The notes under the pieces: model-generated
The model's input: the letters and a program-made list of their open reading frames with translations, nothing else
Told to the model about the DNA's origin: nothing
Databases searched by the model: none
Shown here: one piece after another, positions 2,374-25,907 of the stretch
Position numbering within the stretch: position 1 is the stretch's first letter
How the letters are laid out: each line of letters starts with the position of its first letter
Source of the DNA: a virus
DNA: 30,315 bases
Reading direction: 5' to 3' (one strand)
IMG/VR virus record: IMGVR_UViG_3300025164_001119
Span: 1 to 30,315 of that record
Made by a program: the position numbers and the translations under genes

Positions 2374-3021
2374 ATGGCTTTAGAAGATTTAGTGGGAGAT
2401 AGGTACATAAATGCCTTGTTGGAATCTAATCCAGTAGGGGCTACTGATGCTAAAAGTTTTTTGGATGAGCACCTTCGGGGTGTGAAGAATGTACTAAAAA
2501 AGACGTTTCCCGGCATTATAGGTCCAGTTACAGCAACACAAAGTGAGCTAAATAATGGATATGCGGCTTATCCTTCTGGAACAAAATCTTTTTTTATACA
2601 AGCGGCTGCGCCGTCAGGTTGGACACAAGATGTAACTTATAATGATATGATGCTGCGTGTTGTTAATACAGCCGGTGGTGGGCTAGGGGGAAGCTGGACA
2701 ATAAGCGGGGCTACCGTTGGTTCTACAGTAGTGGCGCAAGCGCAACTTCCAACGCATGCTCATACCGGGGCCTTCTCCGGAGGAACACATGAACACACTT
2801 TTCCGGTAGGTGTTAGTGGTGCTTATACAGGTACAATGCCTGATGAGACTACTGCTAATGATAGTGTCACTTGGACAGAAACAACAAGTACAACAGGGGC
2901 GCATCTGCATACTTTCACAACAGGCGGTACAGGGGGAGGTACAGGGCATACGCACAGTCTTACAATGGGGGCTCTTTGGCGGCCTTCATATGTGGATGTT
3001 ATTTGTTGCATACGCGTATAG
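2374..3021 (+). CDS. Fibre-tip protein 1, His-x-His collar type (paralogue 1 of 3)
   Basis: This 215-residue protein is the first of three tandem paralogues. Residues 1-60 are a conserved N-terminal region (ALEDLVGDRYINAL, HLRGVKNVLKKTFP) that probably attaches the protein to the tail or makes it trimerise. Next comes the phage collar-like segment AAAPSGWTQD, then a His-rich tip with THAH, THEH, HLH and HTH, ending in WRPSYVDVICCIRV. In the T4 long tail fibre tip such HxH motifs bind iron along the trimer axis; a similar metal-bound, receptor-contacting needle is inferred here. The start has GGGAG upstream inside the adaptor gene. Confidence 0.75.
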   Translation: MALEDLVGDRYINALLESNPVGATDAKSFLDEHLRGVKNVLKKTFPGIIGPVTATQSELNNGYAAYPSGTKSFFIQAAAPSGWTQDVTYNDMMLRVVNTAGGGLGGSWTISGATVGSTVVAQAQLPTHAHTGAFSGGTHEHTFPVGVSGAYTGTMPDETTANDSVTWTETTSTTGAHLHTFTTGGTGGGTGHTHSLTMGALWRPSYVDVICCIRV

Positions 3022-3033
3022 GGAGAGAGGCTT

Positions 3034-3693
3034 ATGGCTTTAGAAGATTTAACCGGGGATAAGTACATAGATGCGCTGGTTAGTGCTAATCCAGTAGGGA
3101 CTACTGATAGCATAGCTACTGTGGATAATCATATTCGGGGCATAAAGAATGTACTAAAGAAGACATTTCCTAACCTTACAGGTCCAGTTACAGTAACAGC
3201 AAGTGAGCTAAATGAAAGTTATAAAAGTATTCCAGCGGGAACAAAGGCAACTTTTGCCCAAGCGGCTGCGCCTTCGGGCTGGACCCAAGATACTTTTCCT
3301 AATGATAAGATGTTACGTGTTGTGAGTACTGCGGGGGGAACTACTGGAGGTGCTTGGGGCATTTCTGGCTTTGTTTTAGCTAATTCTATTCTAACCCAGG
3401 CTCAGTTACCTTCACATTCACATACGGTTACGACTAGCACAGATGGGAGTCATACGCATACCTTTCCTCTATTTACTGCCTTCGATGGTTTTAGTACGGG
3501 TTTTAGTATGGGTTTTTTCATGGTATTTAATTCATCCGCAACAGCAACAAATGTAACAACTCAAAATGGTTCCCATGTGCATACATACACTACAAGTAAT
3601 ATAGGTAATGGGCAGGCTCATGGTCACACATTAACTTTTGATGGGGCGTGGCGGCCTTCCTATCTTGATACTATAATTTGCATTCGCGCGTAG
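3034..3693 (+). CDS. Fibre-tip protein 2, His-x-His collar type (paralogue 2 of 3)
   Basis: This 219-residue protein begins 13 bases after the stop of paralogue 1, behind GGGAGAGG. It shares the N-terminal attachment region (ALEDLTGDKYIDAL, HIRGIKNVLKKTFP) and the collar segment AAAPSGWTQD. The His tip carries SHSH, SHTHT, SHVHT and HGHT and ends in WRPSYLDTIICIRA. The stretch between the second and third HxH motifs differs completely from the other two paralogues and is rich in Phe, Gly and Met (about residues 148-167). The divergence is concentrated in the part expected to be exposed at the tip. Confidence 0.75.
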   Translation: MALEDLTGDKYIDALVSANPVGTTDSIATVDNHIRGIKNVLKKTFPNLTGPVTVTASELNESYKSIPAGTKATFAQAAAPSGWTQDTFPNDKMLRVVSTAGGTTGGAWGISGFVLANSILTQAQLPSHSHTVTTSTDGSHTHTFPLFTAFDGFSTGFSMGFFMVFNSSATATNVTTQNGSHVHTYTTSNIGNGQAHGHTLTFDGAWRPSYLDTIICIRA

Positions 3694-3702
3694 GGAGGGC
3701 TT

Positions 3703-4347
3703 ATGCCACTAGAAGATTTAATCGGAGATAAATACATAGATGCCTTGGTTAGCGATAACCCGGTAGGGACTACTGACACATTAAGCACTGTGGATGAGCA
3801 TCTTCGGGGCATAAAGAATGTACTGAAGAAGACGTTTCCTAACCTTACAGGTATTGTGCTAGCAACACAAAATGAATTAAACAATGGATATCGTGGAATT
3901 GCTCAGAATACAAAAACATTTTTCTACCAGGCATCTGCCCCTTCAGGCTGGACACAGACTACTACGCTAAATGATAAAATGATACGCCTTGTTTCCAGCG
4001 TTGGTGCAGGTATTGGGGGAGCTTGGGCGATAACCGGGCATAATTTGGCAGCTACAGTTCTTAGTGCAGCACAAATGCCTAGCCATCAACATACAGGTAC
4101 GACAACAACTGATGGGGCGCATACACATACAGTATCTAGTTATGCATATACTGGTCCTTATGTTAGAATGAGGGGGGCATTCTTTGCACAGACTCTTTCT
4201 AATATGACTGTAGATGCAGCGGGGGCACACTCACATACATCGACGACGAGTAGCATTGGAAATAATCAGGGGCATTCCCATACACTCACGCATGATGGAA
4301 ACTGGCGACCCGCTTATATTGATATAATTGCCTGCACAAAAAATTGA
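3703..4347 (+). CDS. Fibre-tip protein 3, His-x-His collar type (paralogue 3 of 3)
   Basis: This 214-residue protein begins ten bases after the stop of paralogue 2, behind TAGGGAGGG. The N-terminal region (PLEDLIGDKYIDAL, HLRGIKNVLKKTFP) and SAPSGWTQT match the two upstream copies. The tip has SHQH, AHTHT, AHSHT and GHSHT and ends in WRPAYIDIIACTKN. As in paralogue 2, the loop between the second and third HxH motifs (about residues 145-170) is unique to this copy. The three genes may be alternative receptor tips or may occupy different positions in one tail structure; the sequence cannot decide. Confidence 0.75.
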   Translation: MPLEDLIGDKYIDALVSDNPVGTTDTLSTVDEHLRGIKNVLKKTFPNLTGIVLATQNELNNGYRGIAQNTKTFFYQASAPSGWTQTTTLNDKMIRLVSSVGAGIGGAWAITGHNLAATVLSAAQMPSHQHTGTTTTDGAHTHTVSSYAYTGPYVRMRGAFFAQTLSNMTVDAAGAHSHTSTTSSIGNNQGHSHTLTHDGNWRPAYIDIIACTKN

Positions 4348-16610: not shown

Positions 16611-17330
16611 TTACCAGTTTACTTTTTTACAATCCCCCCAGGAAACTGTACTTGTCTTGAGCCCTACACCAATGACAAGGGGATCGGTGTAGGGTATGGT
16701 AATGCTTAGTTGTTGTTTTATCTTGGGTAACAGGGCAGAGGTTTGTTTAGTAGGAAATTGTAAAACAAGGGAATCATGCACTTGAAGGAGCAATTGCACT
16801 TGTGGTAGGTTTTGGAAGATATTCCTCAATCCATGATTTATGACAATGGCAACTGTTGATTGCGGAACCCAAGCAAGGGCTTCCGGTAGGGTATTTTCTA
16901 TCCGCGAGAAGTAAAAACGACGAAAGCCAAAAGCATTCCAAACCGTTCGCGTCTGCATAAGAGACTCTTGTGTTCGCCGATGCCAAGCGAGGATTCTGGG
17001 GTGCATCTGAAACCAGCGGCGTTGTAGGTATTCAGCCTGCGCAATAGTAAGGCCACAACCTTTTGCGCAGGTGCGAGCTTTTCCACCATAGTTTGTTAGG
17101 TGTATGAATTTCTTCCCTATCGCCCTCTGTGTGGGAGACACAGCGGTTGTGTTGTATAGTAGCTTTGCATTCTCCATATGGATATCAATGCCGGCCCGTA
17201 GCATATCCTTTAGTTCCACATCCTCGGCTTCCCAGACTACAACCTGTAAATCTGCCCTATCTAGGTCACAATCACCTATGGTATAGCCCGAATCGGGAAC
17301 AAACATTTTTCGTACATTCGGCAGCTTCAT
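16611..17330 (-). CDS. polA: Family A DNA polymerase, C-terminal part (palm and fingers)
   Basis: This 239-residue protein holds the catalytic core of a family A polymerase: motif A DLDRADLQ (Asp22, with Asp27 in place of the usual Glu), motif B R69-x3-K73 leading to NYG at 80-82, and motif C VHDSL (Asp186). The position equal to Phe762 of E. coli Pol I is His77, as in many phage enzymes. It lacks the first part of the palm, which is encoded by the gene just upstream in the same frame, one TAA codon away. AGGAG lies eight bases before its ATG, so separate translation is plausible. It cannot be a full polymerase alone and should pair with the upstream product. Confidence 0.85.
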   Translation of the reverse strand: MKLPNVRKMFVPDSGYTIGDCDLDRADLQVVVWEAEDVELKDMLRAGIDIHMENAKLLYNTTAVSPTQRAIGKKFIHLTNYGGKARTCAKGCGLTIAQAEYLQRRWFQMHPRILAWHRRTQESLMQTRTVWNAFGFRRFYFSRIENTLPEALAWVPQSTVAIVINHGLRNIFQNLPQVQLLLQVHDSLVLQFPTKQTSALLPKIKQQLSITIPYTDPLVIGVGLKTSTVSWGDCKKVNW

Positions 17331-18836
17331 TTAGAAGTCTCCTGTTGGGATATTTTGTAAGTTTGTACCGTAGTTGAAAACGTCAGTAGTAGAATTAAAG
17401 CGAAAGGTTTCGGTGCCTACCGGATTATAACTGCATCTAATACGCTTGTCATGATCCAGGGGAGCCTGAATAAAAGTAGAGAGGAAAACACCAAGGCTTC
17501 TATATGTTGCGAGTGTTGTGCATAGTGGTTGCAGCAAGGGTTCTTTTTTACCTATCTCGACCAAAGCCGTATCGTCACAGGTAGGCTTGCCTGTTTTTCG
17601 GTTTCGTATCGGTGGCAGTTTAAAGATGGTATAGAAAAGTGTTTGTTGCTGTCTTGCAGAGGTATACCAAGGCTTTGCGTTTTTTGCTACCGCCAGTTTA
17701 ATGCCGGGAAGGATAGCGCAAAAATACTCCTCACAAAGAGCTTTTGCCTGTAAGAGGTTCATAAGCATTTTGCCGCGTTCCTTTGCATTTATAGCAGTAC
17801 CGCGCAACATCATATGTAAGATAGGGCGAAGAAGCGACATTTCAAAACTAAAGGGCTTTGAAAGATTAGCGATAGACAAGGCTTGTTGTAGCTCCAAAGC
17901 AATTTCAAAAGTGGCAACACAATCTTTACAGTTATACTTCCATAGTTGTAGCTCGCCCTCGGAAGGTTTCCAATTCTCGGATTCATCCTTCCAGTAATAG
18001 TGGTATTTACAGTAAAGGGAAGAGAGAAAACCTAAATTTTTAGGAAGCCCAGGAAATAAAACAGCATGTCCTATCATTGTATCGAAGCTAGGAAGGACTT
18101 CGATTCCCCATTGGCGGGCTAGATATTGAGCATCATAAAGAAAGTTTTGCCCTATAATTTGAACATTCCTATGCGTGAGGAGTTTGGCCAGCCCCTGTAC
18201 CAGGGATAATTCTTCCTCAAGGGTCCAGTAATTGCTATCCCCTGTAGTAATCATAAAGGGGATACATATAGCGTCTAATGGGGACCAAGCCAGGCCGACA
18301 CAAGCTATCTGCCTGGCGCGGGTTTCCAAGTCGACTGAGAGCTGGAGTTCCCCCGCTTCTGCCTGGGTGAGCAATTCAGTTAGGATGGCCCAGGTTTGAC
18401 TATAATTAGGATTTAGGATAAAGTTATATTCAGGAATCTGAACGGGTTGGTGCAATTCCTGCGCCACCCGTTTGAAATCGTGAACAGCGAGGTAACTCCA
18501 AGCCCACATTTTATTTACACTCTCCATGTCAAAGGTAGCTATCATTTGGGGCTGATATGTTAGCTCAAGTTGAGAATCCCCTTTTAGGTATGATGAGCGC
18601 CATTTATGCACACTTAGTTTGCCCGTGCACTTTTGCAGCGCCTGATCACCAAGCAGTAATACAACGGCTGGCCTATGAATTTCAATTGAGGTTTGGATTA
18701 CCTCCAGGGTTTGTGTGCTGGCAACAAAGTTGCAATCATAGTAGAGAATTCCAGCTTGGTGCAAAAGATCGGAAAGTAATTTTTCCTCCCCTTTGGTTTT
18801 CAGTTCTCCCACAATAAGGGGGCTATTCGGTTGCAT
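17331..18836 (-). CDS. polA: Family A DNA polymerase, N-terminal part (UDG-like fold, 3'-5' exonuclease, thumb)
   Basis: This 501-residue protein has three regions. Residues 1-90 look like a uracil-DNA-glycosylase-type fold (RPAVVLLLGDQALQKCTG, then WRSSYL). Residues 160-315 are a DEDDy proofreading exonuclease with SVDLETR (Asp169, Glu171), NFLYDAQYL (Asp235) and YNCKDCVATFE (Tyr301, Asp305). Residues 325-501 form the thumb and the first palm strand, with GTETFRF and NLQNIPTGDF. The protein stops right after that conserved strand at a TAA, and the rest of the polymerase continues in the same frame with the next codon. GGAG precedes the ATG, which lies 14 bases inside the ParB-methyltransferase gene. 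Confidence 0.85.
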   Translation of the reverse strand: MQPNSPLIVGELKTKGEEKLLSDLLHQAGILYYDCNFVASTQTLEVIQTSIEIHRPAVVLLLGDQALQKCTGKLSVHKWRSSYLKGDSQLELTYQPQMIATFDMESVNKMWAWSYLAVHDFKRVAQELHQPVQIPEYNFILNPNYSQTWAILTELLTQAEAGELQLSVDLETRARQIACVGLAWSPLDAICIPFMITTGDSNYWTLEEELSLVQGLAKLLTHRNVQIIGQNFLYDAQYLARQWGIEVLPSFDTMIGHAVLFPGLPKNLGFLSSLYCKYHYYWKDESENWKPSEGELQLWKYNCKDCVATFEIALELQQALSIANLSKPFSFEMSLLRPILHMMLRGTAINAKERGKMLMNLLQAKALCEEYFCAILPGIKLAVAKNAKPWYTSARQQQTLFYTIFKLPPIRNRKTGKPTCDDTALVEIGKKEPLLQPLCTTLATYRSLGVFLSTFIQAPLDHDKRIRCSYNPVGTETFRFNSTTDVFNYGTNLQNIPTGDF

Positions 18837-20103
18837 TTAAGCGCTCCAATTGAAGTTTACACAATCCTATGGAGGAAGATTCAAGCTCCATTCCAATAGC
18901 GAGGCAATGTGTTTTTTCTGCTGCGTTGAAGATTGTACCACTACCGGCGAAAGGGTCTAAGATGATATTTCCAGGGAGAGCACTGCGGCGGATTAAGTCT
19001 ATATATAGTTCCACAGGTTTTGCCGCACTATGCTCTTTTACTTGTACGGCGGTATGTATTAGCACGTCAGAGCGTAATTCTAGGGTTTTCTTCTTACCTT
19101 TGTTAGCAAAAAGAATACATTCATAGGAACGCCTGGGGCCGTATTCAAGTTCAGGTGCCAACCCATGATTCCCTTTTACCCAAATGAACGGTGTTCTCCA
19201 AACGGACCAACCAGCATCCAGCATTATTTCCCTAAGAGCTATAAAGTTTGAAAAATCACAGAATATGTAGGCATGTGCTTGAGGCTTAGTAATACGCATT
19301 GTTTCCGCAGCCAAGACTCGCATTAATGCTAACCATACAGGAAAACTGTCATCATAGTGGTGAGTTATGGCCGCCATTGTACCGAAAACGTGTGCCTTTA
19401 TCCCGTAGGGAGGATCGGTTAAGATTAAGTCTACACTATTATCTGGTAAGGATACTAGGAGAGCCTTAGCATCTCCTTCCAAGAGTTTATGTCTCTGCTG
19501 TAAAGGCGTTAGTATCTGCGCCATGTGTGTGAGATATTCTTTGTGCATTTTTAGTTTTACGGCTTTAACGGCGTCTTTTTTACTAACTACGTTTTGTATC
19601 TTAGGGTCATTTAGATGCTTTGCTAAAAGCAGGTCTTCGCTTATAGCAGTAATCTCAGCCCCTTGGGCTATTGCCTGTTTTATTTCTGATGCCGTATCAC
19701 GGATGGTTTGCGCTGCATTACGGGTGAGTAAAATGTCATGAAGGCGGGCTGTGGATAAAGCCTTTTCCTGCCAAGAAAGGTCTTCCCGCTGGATATTCTC
19801 AGCTAATTCAATAGCATAACAGGTATCAGGATCGGCTTCTGCTATAGTTACAGCGGGAATGCAATTGGGAGGAATAAGTTTTCCCCCATAGTAAAAGGGA
19901 ATCTGTTTTTTAGCCAAATATTGAATGGCGCGAAAACGGCGTTCCCCAGCAATTAGTTGCTTGTCCTCCTCACGAATCGTGATTGCATGTATGAGTCCAT
20001 TTGTTGCAATGTCCTTAGCAAATTCTGATATGCGAATAGAGTCGATGTAGGTTCTTTGCCTATCTGGTGGTATTTTGATGGAATCAAGGGATAAAAGTAG
20101 CAT
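18823..20103 (-). CDS. ParB-like domain fused to a DNA N6-adenine/N4-cytosine methyltransferase
   Basis: This 426-residue protein combines two domains. Residues 1-135 form a ParB/Srx-type domain with the motif GERRFRA at 53-59, followed by a helical linker with AIELAENIQREDLSWQE. Residues 205-426 are a class beta amino-methyltransferase, with DPPYG at 230-234 (motif IV) before LDPFAGSGT at 382-390 (motif I). It should methylate adenine or cytosine in DNA, probably to block host restriction or to mark replicating phage DNA. The start at 20103 is chosen because AGGAGA lies ten bases upstream; the frame is open further upstream, but that stretch contains a terminator-like hairpin. Its end overlaps the polymerase start by 14 bases. 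Confidence 0.85.
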   Translation of the reverse strand: MLLLSLDSIKIPPDRQRTYIDSIRISEFAKDIATNGLIHAITIREEDKQLIAGERRFRAIQYLAKKQIPFYYGGKLIPPNCIPAVTIAEADPDTCYAIELAENIQREDLSWQEKALSTARLHDILLTRNAAQTIRDTASEIKQAIAQGAEITAISEDLLLAKHLNDPKIQNVVSKKDAVKAVKLKMHKEYLTHMAQILTPLQQRHKLLEGDAKALLVSLPDNSVDLILTDPPYGIKAHVFGTMAAITHHYDDSFPVWLALMRVLAAETMRITKPQAHAYIFCDFSNFIALREIMLDAGWSVWRTPFIWVKGNHGLAPELEYGPRRSYECILFANKGKKKTLELRSDVLIHTAVQVKEHSAAKPVELYIDLIRRSALPGNIILDPFAGSGTIFNAAEKTHCLAIGMELESSSIGLCKLQLERLNATE

Positions 20104-20126
20104 TAGTTTGGCTCTCCTGCGGAGGG

Positions 20127-20154
20127 AAAAAAGTGGGGGCTTTCCACCCCCTTG
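20127..20154 (-). terminator. Intrinsic terminator or attenuator before the ParB-methyltransferase
   Basis: Read leftward, GGGGG, a seven-base loop and CCCCC are followed by AC and six T residues. The hairpin ends about 24 bases before the methyltransferase start codon. Its place inside a set of co-oriented genes suggests partial termination or attenuation rather than the end of an operon. Confidence 0.5.
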
Positions 20155-20213
20155 ATGCTTGCATATATAGATGCACCTATTCGGTTGCACTAACCTATCC
20201 GGGTATACCGGCC

Positions 20214-20639
20214 CTAAAGAGCAGTTACGCCTTTCACATCTGCGTAGATTTTCCCCGATGCTTCCTCCAAACGGTGTTTTACTAAGATGTGAGCAACACA
20301 TCCAATAAGCATGCTGGGGGTCCAAGCTTTACCAGTCTGGTTTTGCTTTACAGCTTCCCGTAGTCGCCCTAATTGGATGTTTGCTCCTTTGCCAGAAAGA
20401 AGATCTCCACTAGCACTGACATCAAGGAAAACACTCTGGCGTATTTTCTTACCGTCAGCATCTGGAGCCTGGGGGGCATCTAACTTCCATGTTACATCTA
20501 GGATTGGTTTGCCTGTTGTAGTGACTCTTGCTGCAATTTCGTCCACCACAGCTTGGTATTCATCCTCGGGGATTGGCGTGTATTCGGTAGCATTAGCTTC
20601 GGTTATTGTCATAGTTGCAAAGGTATTTGGGTCGAACAT
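20214..20639 (-). CDS. DUF669-like phage protein, candidate ssDNA-binding protein
   Basis: This 141-residue protein opens with MFDPNTFATMTI and has EYTPIPEDEYQAVVDEI, then a strand-rich middle, then GANIQLGRLREAVKQN and GCVAHILVKHR. This order fits the DUF669 group of phage proteins, which are regularly encoded beside RecA-like ATPases and are suspected single-stranded-DNA-binding proteins. Here the neighbour is exactly such an ATPase. AGGAG lies eight bases before the ATG. The ssDNA-binding function is inferred from context. Confidence 0.6.
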   Translation of the reverse strand: MFDPNTFATMTITEANATEYTPIPEDEYQAVVDEIAARVTTTGKPILDVTWKLDAPQAPDADGKKIRQSVFLDVSASGDLLSGKGANIQLGRLREAVKQNQTGKAWTPSMLIGCVAHILVKHRLEEASGKIYADVKGVTAL

Positions 20640-24708: not shown

Positions 24709-24898
24709 AATACCCTCCGTACCCAGTAGCATTAAATTCTGGGTAACAAATCCCTTTATCTCTTTTGTTTGCTTCAGCTTCGCAGATTAGGGCGCAAGCC
24801 TCGCGCTCTTCTGCGGCGATTGCTGCAAGAGCTTCATCTAGCCTGACAACCTCTTCTGTAACACTCTGTAGGCGCGAAAGTATTAAAAATGAGTTCAT
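24659..24898 (-). CDS. Small accessory protein with EEREACA motif
   Basis: This 79-residue protein contains LDEALAAIAAEEREACALICEAEANKR (given here as two joined motifs, LDEALAAIAAEE and REACALICEA) and ends with AACIRKRG. The pairing of an EREACA helix with a C-terminal IRxRG segment is common in small phage accessory proteins, for which no function is established. GGAGAT precedes the ATG at 24898. Its central 54 bases are identical to a stretch in the gene at 25461-25796. Confidence 0.7.
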   Translation of the reverse strand: MNSFLILSRLQSVTEEVVRLDEALAAIAAEEREACALICEAEANKRDKGICYPEFNATGYGGYYAACIRKRGIARANDA

Positions 24899-25460: not shown

Positions 25461-25907
25461 TTAAAATTCAGCTTTATAGTAGACTGAAATTAGTTTCTCA
25501 AAGTTAAGCCTGAATACCTGCATCCCCTCTCTACTTTTGTGCCCAATCCAATAATCACCATTTAGATCATGTGTTATTGTGTAGTCTCCTACTGTAATCC
25601 GTTCTAACTCTGTGGCATCGGCGCAAGCCTCGCGCTCTTCTGCGGCGATTGCTGCAAGAGCTTCATCTAGCCTAGCCTGTAGGCGCGATGGTTCTGTGCT
25701 CAAGTTGGCCTGTGCCAATCGGTTAAGCTGATCCAACATTGTCCACGCATTTTTTAATCCTTCAATCGTAATCCTTTCGGTCTCGTACCCGGCCATTGAG
25801 TGCAGAGACCAGCCGCTTTGCTGGCTCTTGCACTGTTTGCATGTTCTTTCAAGCTCTGTGTGCTTCTCTATAACATCTACTGCTAGCTTTACTAGAGTTT
25901 GTTTTAT
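25461..25907 (-). CDS. Early accessory protein with CxxC and EEREACA motifs; start codon uncertain (ATA?)
   Basis: The first ATG of this frame is at 25796, giving 111 residues, but it has no ribosome site. The frame stays open upstream to an AGGAG at 25917-25921, and nine bases after that stands ATA (25907-25905) followed by codons for KQTLVKLAVDVIEKH. The extended protein of 148 residues gains a CKQC motif near residue 24. Either ATA is used as a rare start, or a former ATG was mutated and the protein now starts weakly at 25796. The interior carries TERITIEGLKNAW, the repeated EALAAIAAEEREACA segment and a C-terminal strand-rich end. It is the first gene behind the 25988-26016 promoter. Confidence 0.6.
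   Translation of the reverse strand: MKQTLVKLAVDVIEKHTELERTCKQCKSQQSGWSLHSMAGYETERITIEGLKNAWTMLDQLNRLAQANLSTEPSRLQARLDEALAAIAAEEREACADATELERITVGDYTITHDLNGDYWIGHKSREGMQVFRLNFEKLISVYYKAEF

What the first reader, a model, noticed from the sequence alone, without database searches (positions are those of the whole stretch)
16611..18836. Family A DNA polymerase split by one in-frame TAA at a conserved palm position
The first frame ends NLQNIPTGDF-TAA, and the next codon is ATG of the second frame, which continues KLPNVRKMFVPDSGY and carries motifs A, B and C. Both parts are in the same frame with nothing missing, so one sense codon seems to have become TAA. AGGAG stands eight bases before the restart ATG. 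Neither half is a complete palm, so the halves must assemble, or TAA must be read through. Split T4-like family B polymerases are known; a family A split here would be unusual. The AGGAG also encodes the conserved Gly-Asp residues, so it may be coincidence.
Basis: partly seen in the sequence, partly recalled or inferred. Interest (0 to 1): 0.75.

Follow-up and report, generated by a model that had tools for sequence, protein, structure and literature searches.

The report
Phage DNA polymerase in two genes
A bacterial virus encodes its family A DNA polymerase as two back-to-back genes, broken in a variable loop next to the active site, and dozens of related viruses are broken at the same loop, so this looks like a stable two-part enzyme and not a mutation.

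Summary
A 501-aa ORF (18836-17331) ends NLQNIPTGDF-TAA; a 239-aa ORF (17330-16611) starts at the next codon, same frame, with motifs A, B and C.

It is not a lone nonsense codon. A second contig, 99.8% identical, keeps the TAA. Of 168 non-identical relatives 69 have a split polymerase, 68 of them in this same loop. In 13 of the 14 whose halves abut, the second half is in another frame (mostly ATGA/TAATG overlaps), so read-through cannot join them. In most others, genes lie between the halves (HNH endonuclease, dUTPase, ThyX, ribonucleotide reductase and others).

Both halves keep the catalytic residues and are under purifying selection. In 18 near-genome-length split records the pair is the only family A, B or C polymerase found. 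AGGAG is probably a real ribosome-binding site: such sites are about twice as common here in split as in intact genes.

Best reading: two co-translated subunits assemble into one Klenow-like replicase. The split was gained or lost repeatedly (at least 7 to 12 changes) at one loop. Split family A (OM43 phage MEP401) and family B (T4-like gp43) polymerases are known; this recurrence and scale appear undescribed. Assembly and activity are inferred.

The parts
17331..18836 (-). N-terminal polymerase subunit gene (501 aa): UDG-like N-terminal region, 3'-5' exonuclease, thumb, first part of palm up to NLQNIPTGDF
   Evidence: exonuclease motifs DLET, QNFLYD, YNCKD and TxxR present
17331..17333 (-). 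TAA stop ending the N-subunit, directly followed by ATG
   Evidence: identical in independent contig L002
17339..17343 (-). AGGAG, likely ribosome-binding site of the C-subunit, inside the Thr-Gly-Asp codons, 8 nt before ATG
   Evidence: enrichment in split genes; the same AACAGGAGA element precedes the SSB gene start
16611..17330 (-). C-terminal polymerase subunit gene (239 aa): motif A, fingers with motif B, motif C
18823..20325 (-). ParB-like/DNA methyltransferase gene upstream; its end overlaps the start of the N-subunit gene by 14 nt (start codon uncertain)
   Evidence: same neighbour in L005, L006, L007
15353..16567 (-). Primase-like (DUF3987-type) gene just downstream of the C-subunit
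   Evidence: PHROG DNA primase E 9.6e-80; same neighbour annotated in Microcystis phage Mel-JY34

Best explanation
This is a functional two-subunit family A DNA polymerase of a tailed phage. The gene has undergone fission in a variable loop of the palm, between NLQNIP and the segment that leads to motif A. Both cistrons are read from one mRNA: the ribosome ends at TAA and starts again at the adjoining ATG, helped by the AGGAG inside the last codons of the first cistron. The subunits (exonuclease, thumb and part of the palm; rest of the palm and fingers) then assemble without a covalent link into one Klenow-like replicase. Shown here by sequence: the split, its recurrence at one loop, catalytic residues kept in both parts, purifying selection on both parts in split relatives, the ribosome-binding-site signal, and no other family A, B or C polymerase found in near-genome-length split relatives. 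Inferred: co-translation, assembly and activity.
For: Identical arrangement in a second contig. 68 of 69 split relatives break in the same loop. Abutting halves in relatives are out of frame in 13 of 13 other cases, with -4/-1 overlaps typical of coupled translation. Whole genes between the halves in most others. Motif A Asp, motif B Lys, motif C His and Asp kept in 69/69 split sequences, exonuclease residues in nearly all that cover them. dN/dS 0.07-0.19 for either half where estimable. N and C distances correlate, Mantel r 0.59, 0 of 2000 permutations. SD 4-mers after NLQN in 54/68 split versus 28/79 intact genes. Split pair is the only PolA and no PolB/PolC found in 18 records of 39.5-58.9 kb. 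Read-through chain folds as a Klenow-type polymerase with the junction in a coil. Precedent: phage 25 43A/43B co-purify and polymerise; split NrdA of Aeh1 is active (PMC2988022).
Against: No protein-level data. The window is a fragment, so a second polymerase elsewhere in this genome is not excluded. No two-chain structure prediction could be run. In the window alone the in-frame stop would also fit read-through. SD and tree counts are not fully corrected for shared ancestry.
Confidence: 0.87

Rival explanations
1. Read-through or reassignment: the two ORFs are one gene, and TAA at 17333-17331 is read as an amino acid, so that a single chain is made.
For: In the window the halves are in the same frame with nothing between, and the read-through chain folds with high confidence.
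Against: All 13 other relatives with abutting halves have the second half in another frame, and in most of the rest genes lie between. TAA, TAG and TGA all end other genes of the window and none of those has an internal stop. No suppressor tRNA found in the window. A strong ribosome-binding site and ATG sit at the junction. One in three adjacent splits would be in frame by chance.
Confidence: 0.05
2. A broken gene: a recent nonsense mutation (or an assembly error) has inactivated the polymerase, or left a pseudogene.
For: A single in-frame stop is what a nonsense mutation looks like; intact relatives exist.
Against: Same stop in a second contig. Clade mates at about 50% identity are split at the same place. 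dN/dS well below 1 in split pairs and catalytic residues kept. No other family A, B or C polymerase found in 18 long split records.
Confidence: 0.04
3. About origin, compatible with the best explanation: the fission was made by an HNH homing endonuclease that inserted at this conserved stretch; the endonuclease was later lost in the window, leaving the two cistrons abutting.
For: HNH genes sit at the junction in L013 (clade mate of the window), L197 and L245. L197 and L198 are 92-96% identical and differ by an HNH gene exactly at the ATGA junction. Precedent: mobE in Aeh1 nrdA (PMC2988022).
Against: Most inserts found are not endonucleases. The endonuclease may have entered an already split junction, a possibility the review raises for phage 25 gene 43. 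L053 is split with an overlap and no insert, next to intact relatives.
Confidence: 0.35
4. Self-splicing intron or intein remnants: the gap is spliced at the RNA or protein level and one chain results.
For: Introns in phage polymerase genes are common, and the MEP401 authors considered an intron.
Against: In the window there is nothing to splice out. Rfam found no intron in 12 sources at gathering thresholds. The halves end and begin within a few to about 15 residues of the core in most cases, so there is no room for intein domains. The inserts are ordinary genes.
Confidence: 0.02

Closest known systems
Split family A polymerase of OM43 phages MEP401/MEP402 (PMC10580990; OP830906)
   Same: Family A phage polymerase in two cistrons; the first has exonuclease and N-terminal PolA, the second C-terminal PolA; a small unknown ORF between
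   Different: Distant polymerase lineage; the break is about 15-20 residues further on, right before motif A; always an ORF between in the genome read here; authors suggested an intron
[quoted passage not shown]
   Same: Homologous polymerase split at the same loop (first half ends NLQNLPKGDG), same methyltransferase gene upstream
   Different: A 184-aa gene of unknown function lies between; deposited as separate ORFs; I found no paper that discusses the split
Split gp43 (43A/43B) of T4-like Aeromonas phages 25 and 44RR (Petrov et al. 2010, as reviewed in PMC2988022)
   Same: Replicative phage polymerase in two genes, in one case with a homing endonuclease at the junction; products shown to co-purify and polymerise
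   Different: Family B polymerase, unrelated fold, different break
NrdA of phage Aeh1 split by mobE (PMC2988022)
   Same: Essential phage enzyme broken in a critical region and active as two chains
   Different: Ribonucleotide reductase; HNH gene still present
Split PolB with split intein of phage MIJ3 (PMC6892783)
   Same: Phage polymerase in two ORFs
   Different: Family B; carries intein motifs for trans-splicing; none here

Membership tests
Family A DNA polymerase with 3'-5' exonuclease (Pol I/Klenow type) | DNA_pol_A and exonuclease domains | tested here: met
   PF01612 E 1.2e-13; PF00476 split over both ORFs, E 2.8e-6 and 2.6e-24
Family A DNA polymerase with 3'-5' exonuclease (Pol I/Klenow type) | Catalytic residues of motifs A, B, C and the exonuclease | tested here: met
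   All present; only the Phe762 position of motif B is His
Family A DNA polymerase with 3'-5' exonuclease (Pol I/Klenow type) | Klenow fold | tested here: met
   AlphaFold2 of the read-through chain, pLDDT 93.4; 1d8y Z 31.1 over 554 residues. Says nothing on assembly of two chains
Naturally split phage polymerase (as gp43A/B, MEP401) | One ancestral chain in two separately started cistrons, nothing essential lost | tested here: met
Naturally split phage polymerase (as gp43A/B, MEP401) | Products associate and polymerise | not testable with these tools
   Needs co-expression and assay
Gene split by a homing endonuclease | Endonuclease gene at the junction | tested here: not met
   None in the window; present at the junction in relatives L013, L197, L245
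Stop-codon read-through or recoded gene | Same-frame stop kept across relatives, or TAA as sense in other genes | tested here: not met
   Abutting relatives out of frame; no internal TAA in conserved genes of the window, TAA ends several
Group I/II intron | Intron RNA at the junction | tested here: not met
   No intervening sequence in the window; no Rfam match in 12 sources
Split intein | Intein N and C domains flanking the break | tested here: not met
   N half ends 4 residues after NLQNIP, C half starts 2 residues before the core; no separate intein search was run

The most novel reading that the evidence does not exclude
The loop between NLQN and motif A in phage family A polymerases is a natural, repeatedly used fission point with a ready-made ribosome-binding site in its Lys-Gly-Asp/Glu codons, so few mutations give two translatable subunits; and the two-subunit form is kept because it brings a benefit, such as loss of a homing-endonuclease target, room for gene insertion, or control of the subunit ratio.
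Probability: 0.3. Interest if true: 0.78.

Novelty: new variant of a known kind. Interest (0 to 1): 0.64.

Why it matters
A replicative polymerase cut through its palm about twenty residues before a catalytic aspartate, in many lineages at the same loop and often with kilobases of other genes in between, would mean that a Klenow-type enzyme works as an obligate two-chain complex. It would supply dozens of natural split designs for polymerase engineering, a set of repeated cases for studying gene fission and how phage operons take up genes, and a warning for annotation, where such genes look broken. Working split phage enzymes were isolated cases (gp43, NrdA); here the question can be put comparatively, with near pairs such as L197/L198 and L053/L074.

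Tried and rejected
Assembly error or recent nonsense mutation: rejected by the second contig and by the all-split clade. Recoding of TAA: rejected by stop usage and out-of-frame relatives. Intron: no Rfam match at gathering thresholds. Intein: no room for intein domains. Isolated phages: 770 records match the polymerase, but only the best 40 were listed and six fetched; of these VS-ABTNL-3 alone is split at this loop, so others may exist. Literature: all ten full-text searches used; MEP401/402 is the only split family A phage polymerase found; a survey of Caudoviricetes polymerases (PMC11348598) showed nothing on gene fission in the passages found; the CRP-810 paper (PMC11288001) names VS-ABTNL-3 without its split. 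The genome search printed one long frame for L020 and L213; one search shows five TGA (L020) and mixed stops (L213) between the halves, so both stay split under the standard code, while for L020 a TGA-recoded reading is not strictly excluded.

Full report
Observation. The two frames exist as described, on the minus strand: 18836-17331 (501 aa) and 17330-16611 (239 aa), adjacent and in one frame, with TAA at 17333-17331 and AGGAG at 17343-17339. The window is a 30,315-base IMG/VR virus record. The first ORF has the 3'-5' exonuclease domain and the first part of DNA_pol_A, the second ORF the rest. A second contig, L002, aligns over 13.6 kb with 29 SNPs and keeps the same stop; its two SNPs in the polymerase are synonymous.

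Relatives. Isolated Vibrio phage VS-ABTNL-3 has the homologous polymerase broken at the same place, with a 184-aa gene between. The IMG/VR scans and the fetched phage records gave 168 non-identical relatives, a few of them near-copies. A profile scan of the frames found 69 split and 99 intact. In 68 of the 69 the first half ends at profile column 548-552 or the break falls there by its C half, and the second begins at 544-557 of 798; the exception, L004, breaks about 15 columns later. One of the 68 (L018) has its N half cut off by the contig end. The set was picked by similarity, so 69/168 is not a population frequency. A contig binned with Ignavibacteria (L300) is split there too, one binned with Nitrospinota (L299) is intact.

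Junction. Intact relatives have a loop of very variable length here. Split first halves typically end NLQNIPKGDE(E). In 14 cases the halves abut (distance -8 to +2, with start codons chosen by a simple rule); in 13 of these the second half is in a different frame, mostly as ATGA or TAATG overlaps, and only the window is in frame. The in-frame position is therefore probably chance. In most of the others one or more ORFs lie between the halves: HNH endonucleases (L013, L197, L245), dUTPases (L201, L211, L221, L226, L295), ThyX (L036), Lon-like (L055, L072), methyltransferase-like (L016, L038), exonuclease (L034, L255), ribonucleotide reductase (L210, L275), nucleotide pyrophosphohydrolases (L037, L254) and small unknown ORFs. 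Halves separated by such genes cannot be joined by read-through.

Ribosome-binding site. In the 27 nt after NLQN a 4-base Shine-Dalgarno match occurs in 54/68 split genes, 28/79 intact genes and 21-25% of random in-frame stretches of the same genes; a 5-base match in 27/68, 7/79 and 4% (Fisher p 7e-8 and 1e-5). The Gly codon is GGA or GGG in 48/53 split genes, although GGC is the commonest Gly codon in these genes. Shared ancestry is not corrected for, and where a gene is inserted the site may serve that gene. In the window the same AACAGGAGA element precedes the SSB gene.

Selection and function. Motif A Asp, motif B Lys and motif C His-Asp are present in all 69 split sequences, and exonuclease residues in nearly all that cover them, as in intact relatives. 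dN/dS is 0.07-0.19 for either half where it could be estimated. Distances of N and C halves correlate (Mantel r 0.59 in split, 0.73 in intact). In 18 split records of 39.5-58.9 kb the only family A matches are the split pair (in three of them only the C half passed the Pfam threshold), and no family B or C polymerase was found. The read-through chain, folded once as a map, gives pLDDT 93.4 and a Klenow fold (1d8y, Z 31.1, 554 residues aligned), with the junction residue 502 in a coil between 485 and 506.

Evolution. In a maximum-likelihood tree of 82 sequences and a FastTree of 150 with the loop columns removed, the split label needs at least 8 and 12 changes; well-supported branches force 6 and 7. 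Gains and losses cannot be told apart. The window lies in a starred clade of four split polymerases. L053 (split) groups with intact relatives. L198 has an ATGA overlap where its 92-96% identical relative L197 has an HNH gene that uses that start. MEP401 breaks some 15-20 residues further on.

Mechanism. Most likely: translation of the first subunit, termination at TAA, initiation at the adjoining ATG helped by AGGAG, and assembly of the two subunits. Precedent: 43A and 43B of phage 25 co-purify and polymerise, and split NrdA of Aeh1 is active (PMC2988022). Co-translation, assembly and activity are inferred here, not shown.

Novelty. Split phage polymerases are a known kind, with one family A example in the literature found (PMC10580990). 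New here, as far as ten full-text searches of an open-access library can tell, are the shared break point in a large group, its repeated gain or loss, and the ribosome-binding-site signal at the break. Subscription literature was not searchable.

Noticed in passing
window 16611-17330 (motif B, HLTNYG) and its relatives: The motif B position that is Phe762 in E. coli Pol I is His in 69/69 split and 98/99 intact relatives; Phe, Tyr or Leu is what I would expect from general knowledge.
   Followed up: partly
L037 1838-5213: Polymerase in three pieces: profile 11-213, 214-551 and 553-798, with about 640 nt between the first two.
   Followed up: no
L025, L056, L057, L065, L066, L164, L223, L008, L009: Other splits of the same gene, mostly between exonuclease and polymerase domains (profile about 344/346), with the motif A loop intact.
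   Followed up: no
L197 4059-4496 versus L198 about 4073: Two 92-96% identical polymerases, one with an HNH gene inserted exactly at the ATGA junction; it uses the old start and the C half has a new one.
   Followed up: partly
window 18866-19196 versus L002: 18 of the 29 SNPs between the two contigs cluster in about 330 bp of the methyltransferase gene just upstream of the polymerase, which suggests local recombination.
   Followed up: no
window 2374-4347, + strand: Three tandem ORFs of 215, 219 and 214 aa with clearly similar sequences (paralogues, tail-fibre-like by PHROG for the first).
   Followed up: no
window 24791-24836 and 25620-25665: An exact 46-base repeat inside two small ORFs that share LDEALAAIAAEEREAC.
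   Followed up: no
window 18500-18836: The N-terminal part of the polymerase resembles a uracil-DNA-glycosylase-like domain of its relatives but lacks the GEAPGxxExxxGxPFVG stretch (alignment).
   Followed up: no
L067 3480-4976: A 499-aa ORF with a CxxCH motif lies between the polymerase halves; no PHROG match. Perhaps of bacterial origin.
   Followed up: no
L020 4830-4988: All five in-frame stops between the two halves are TGA.
   Followed up: no
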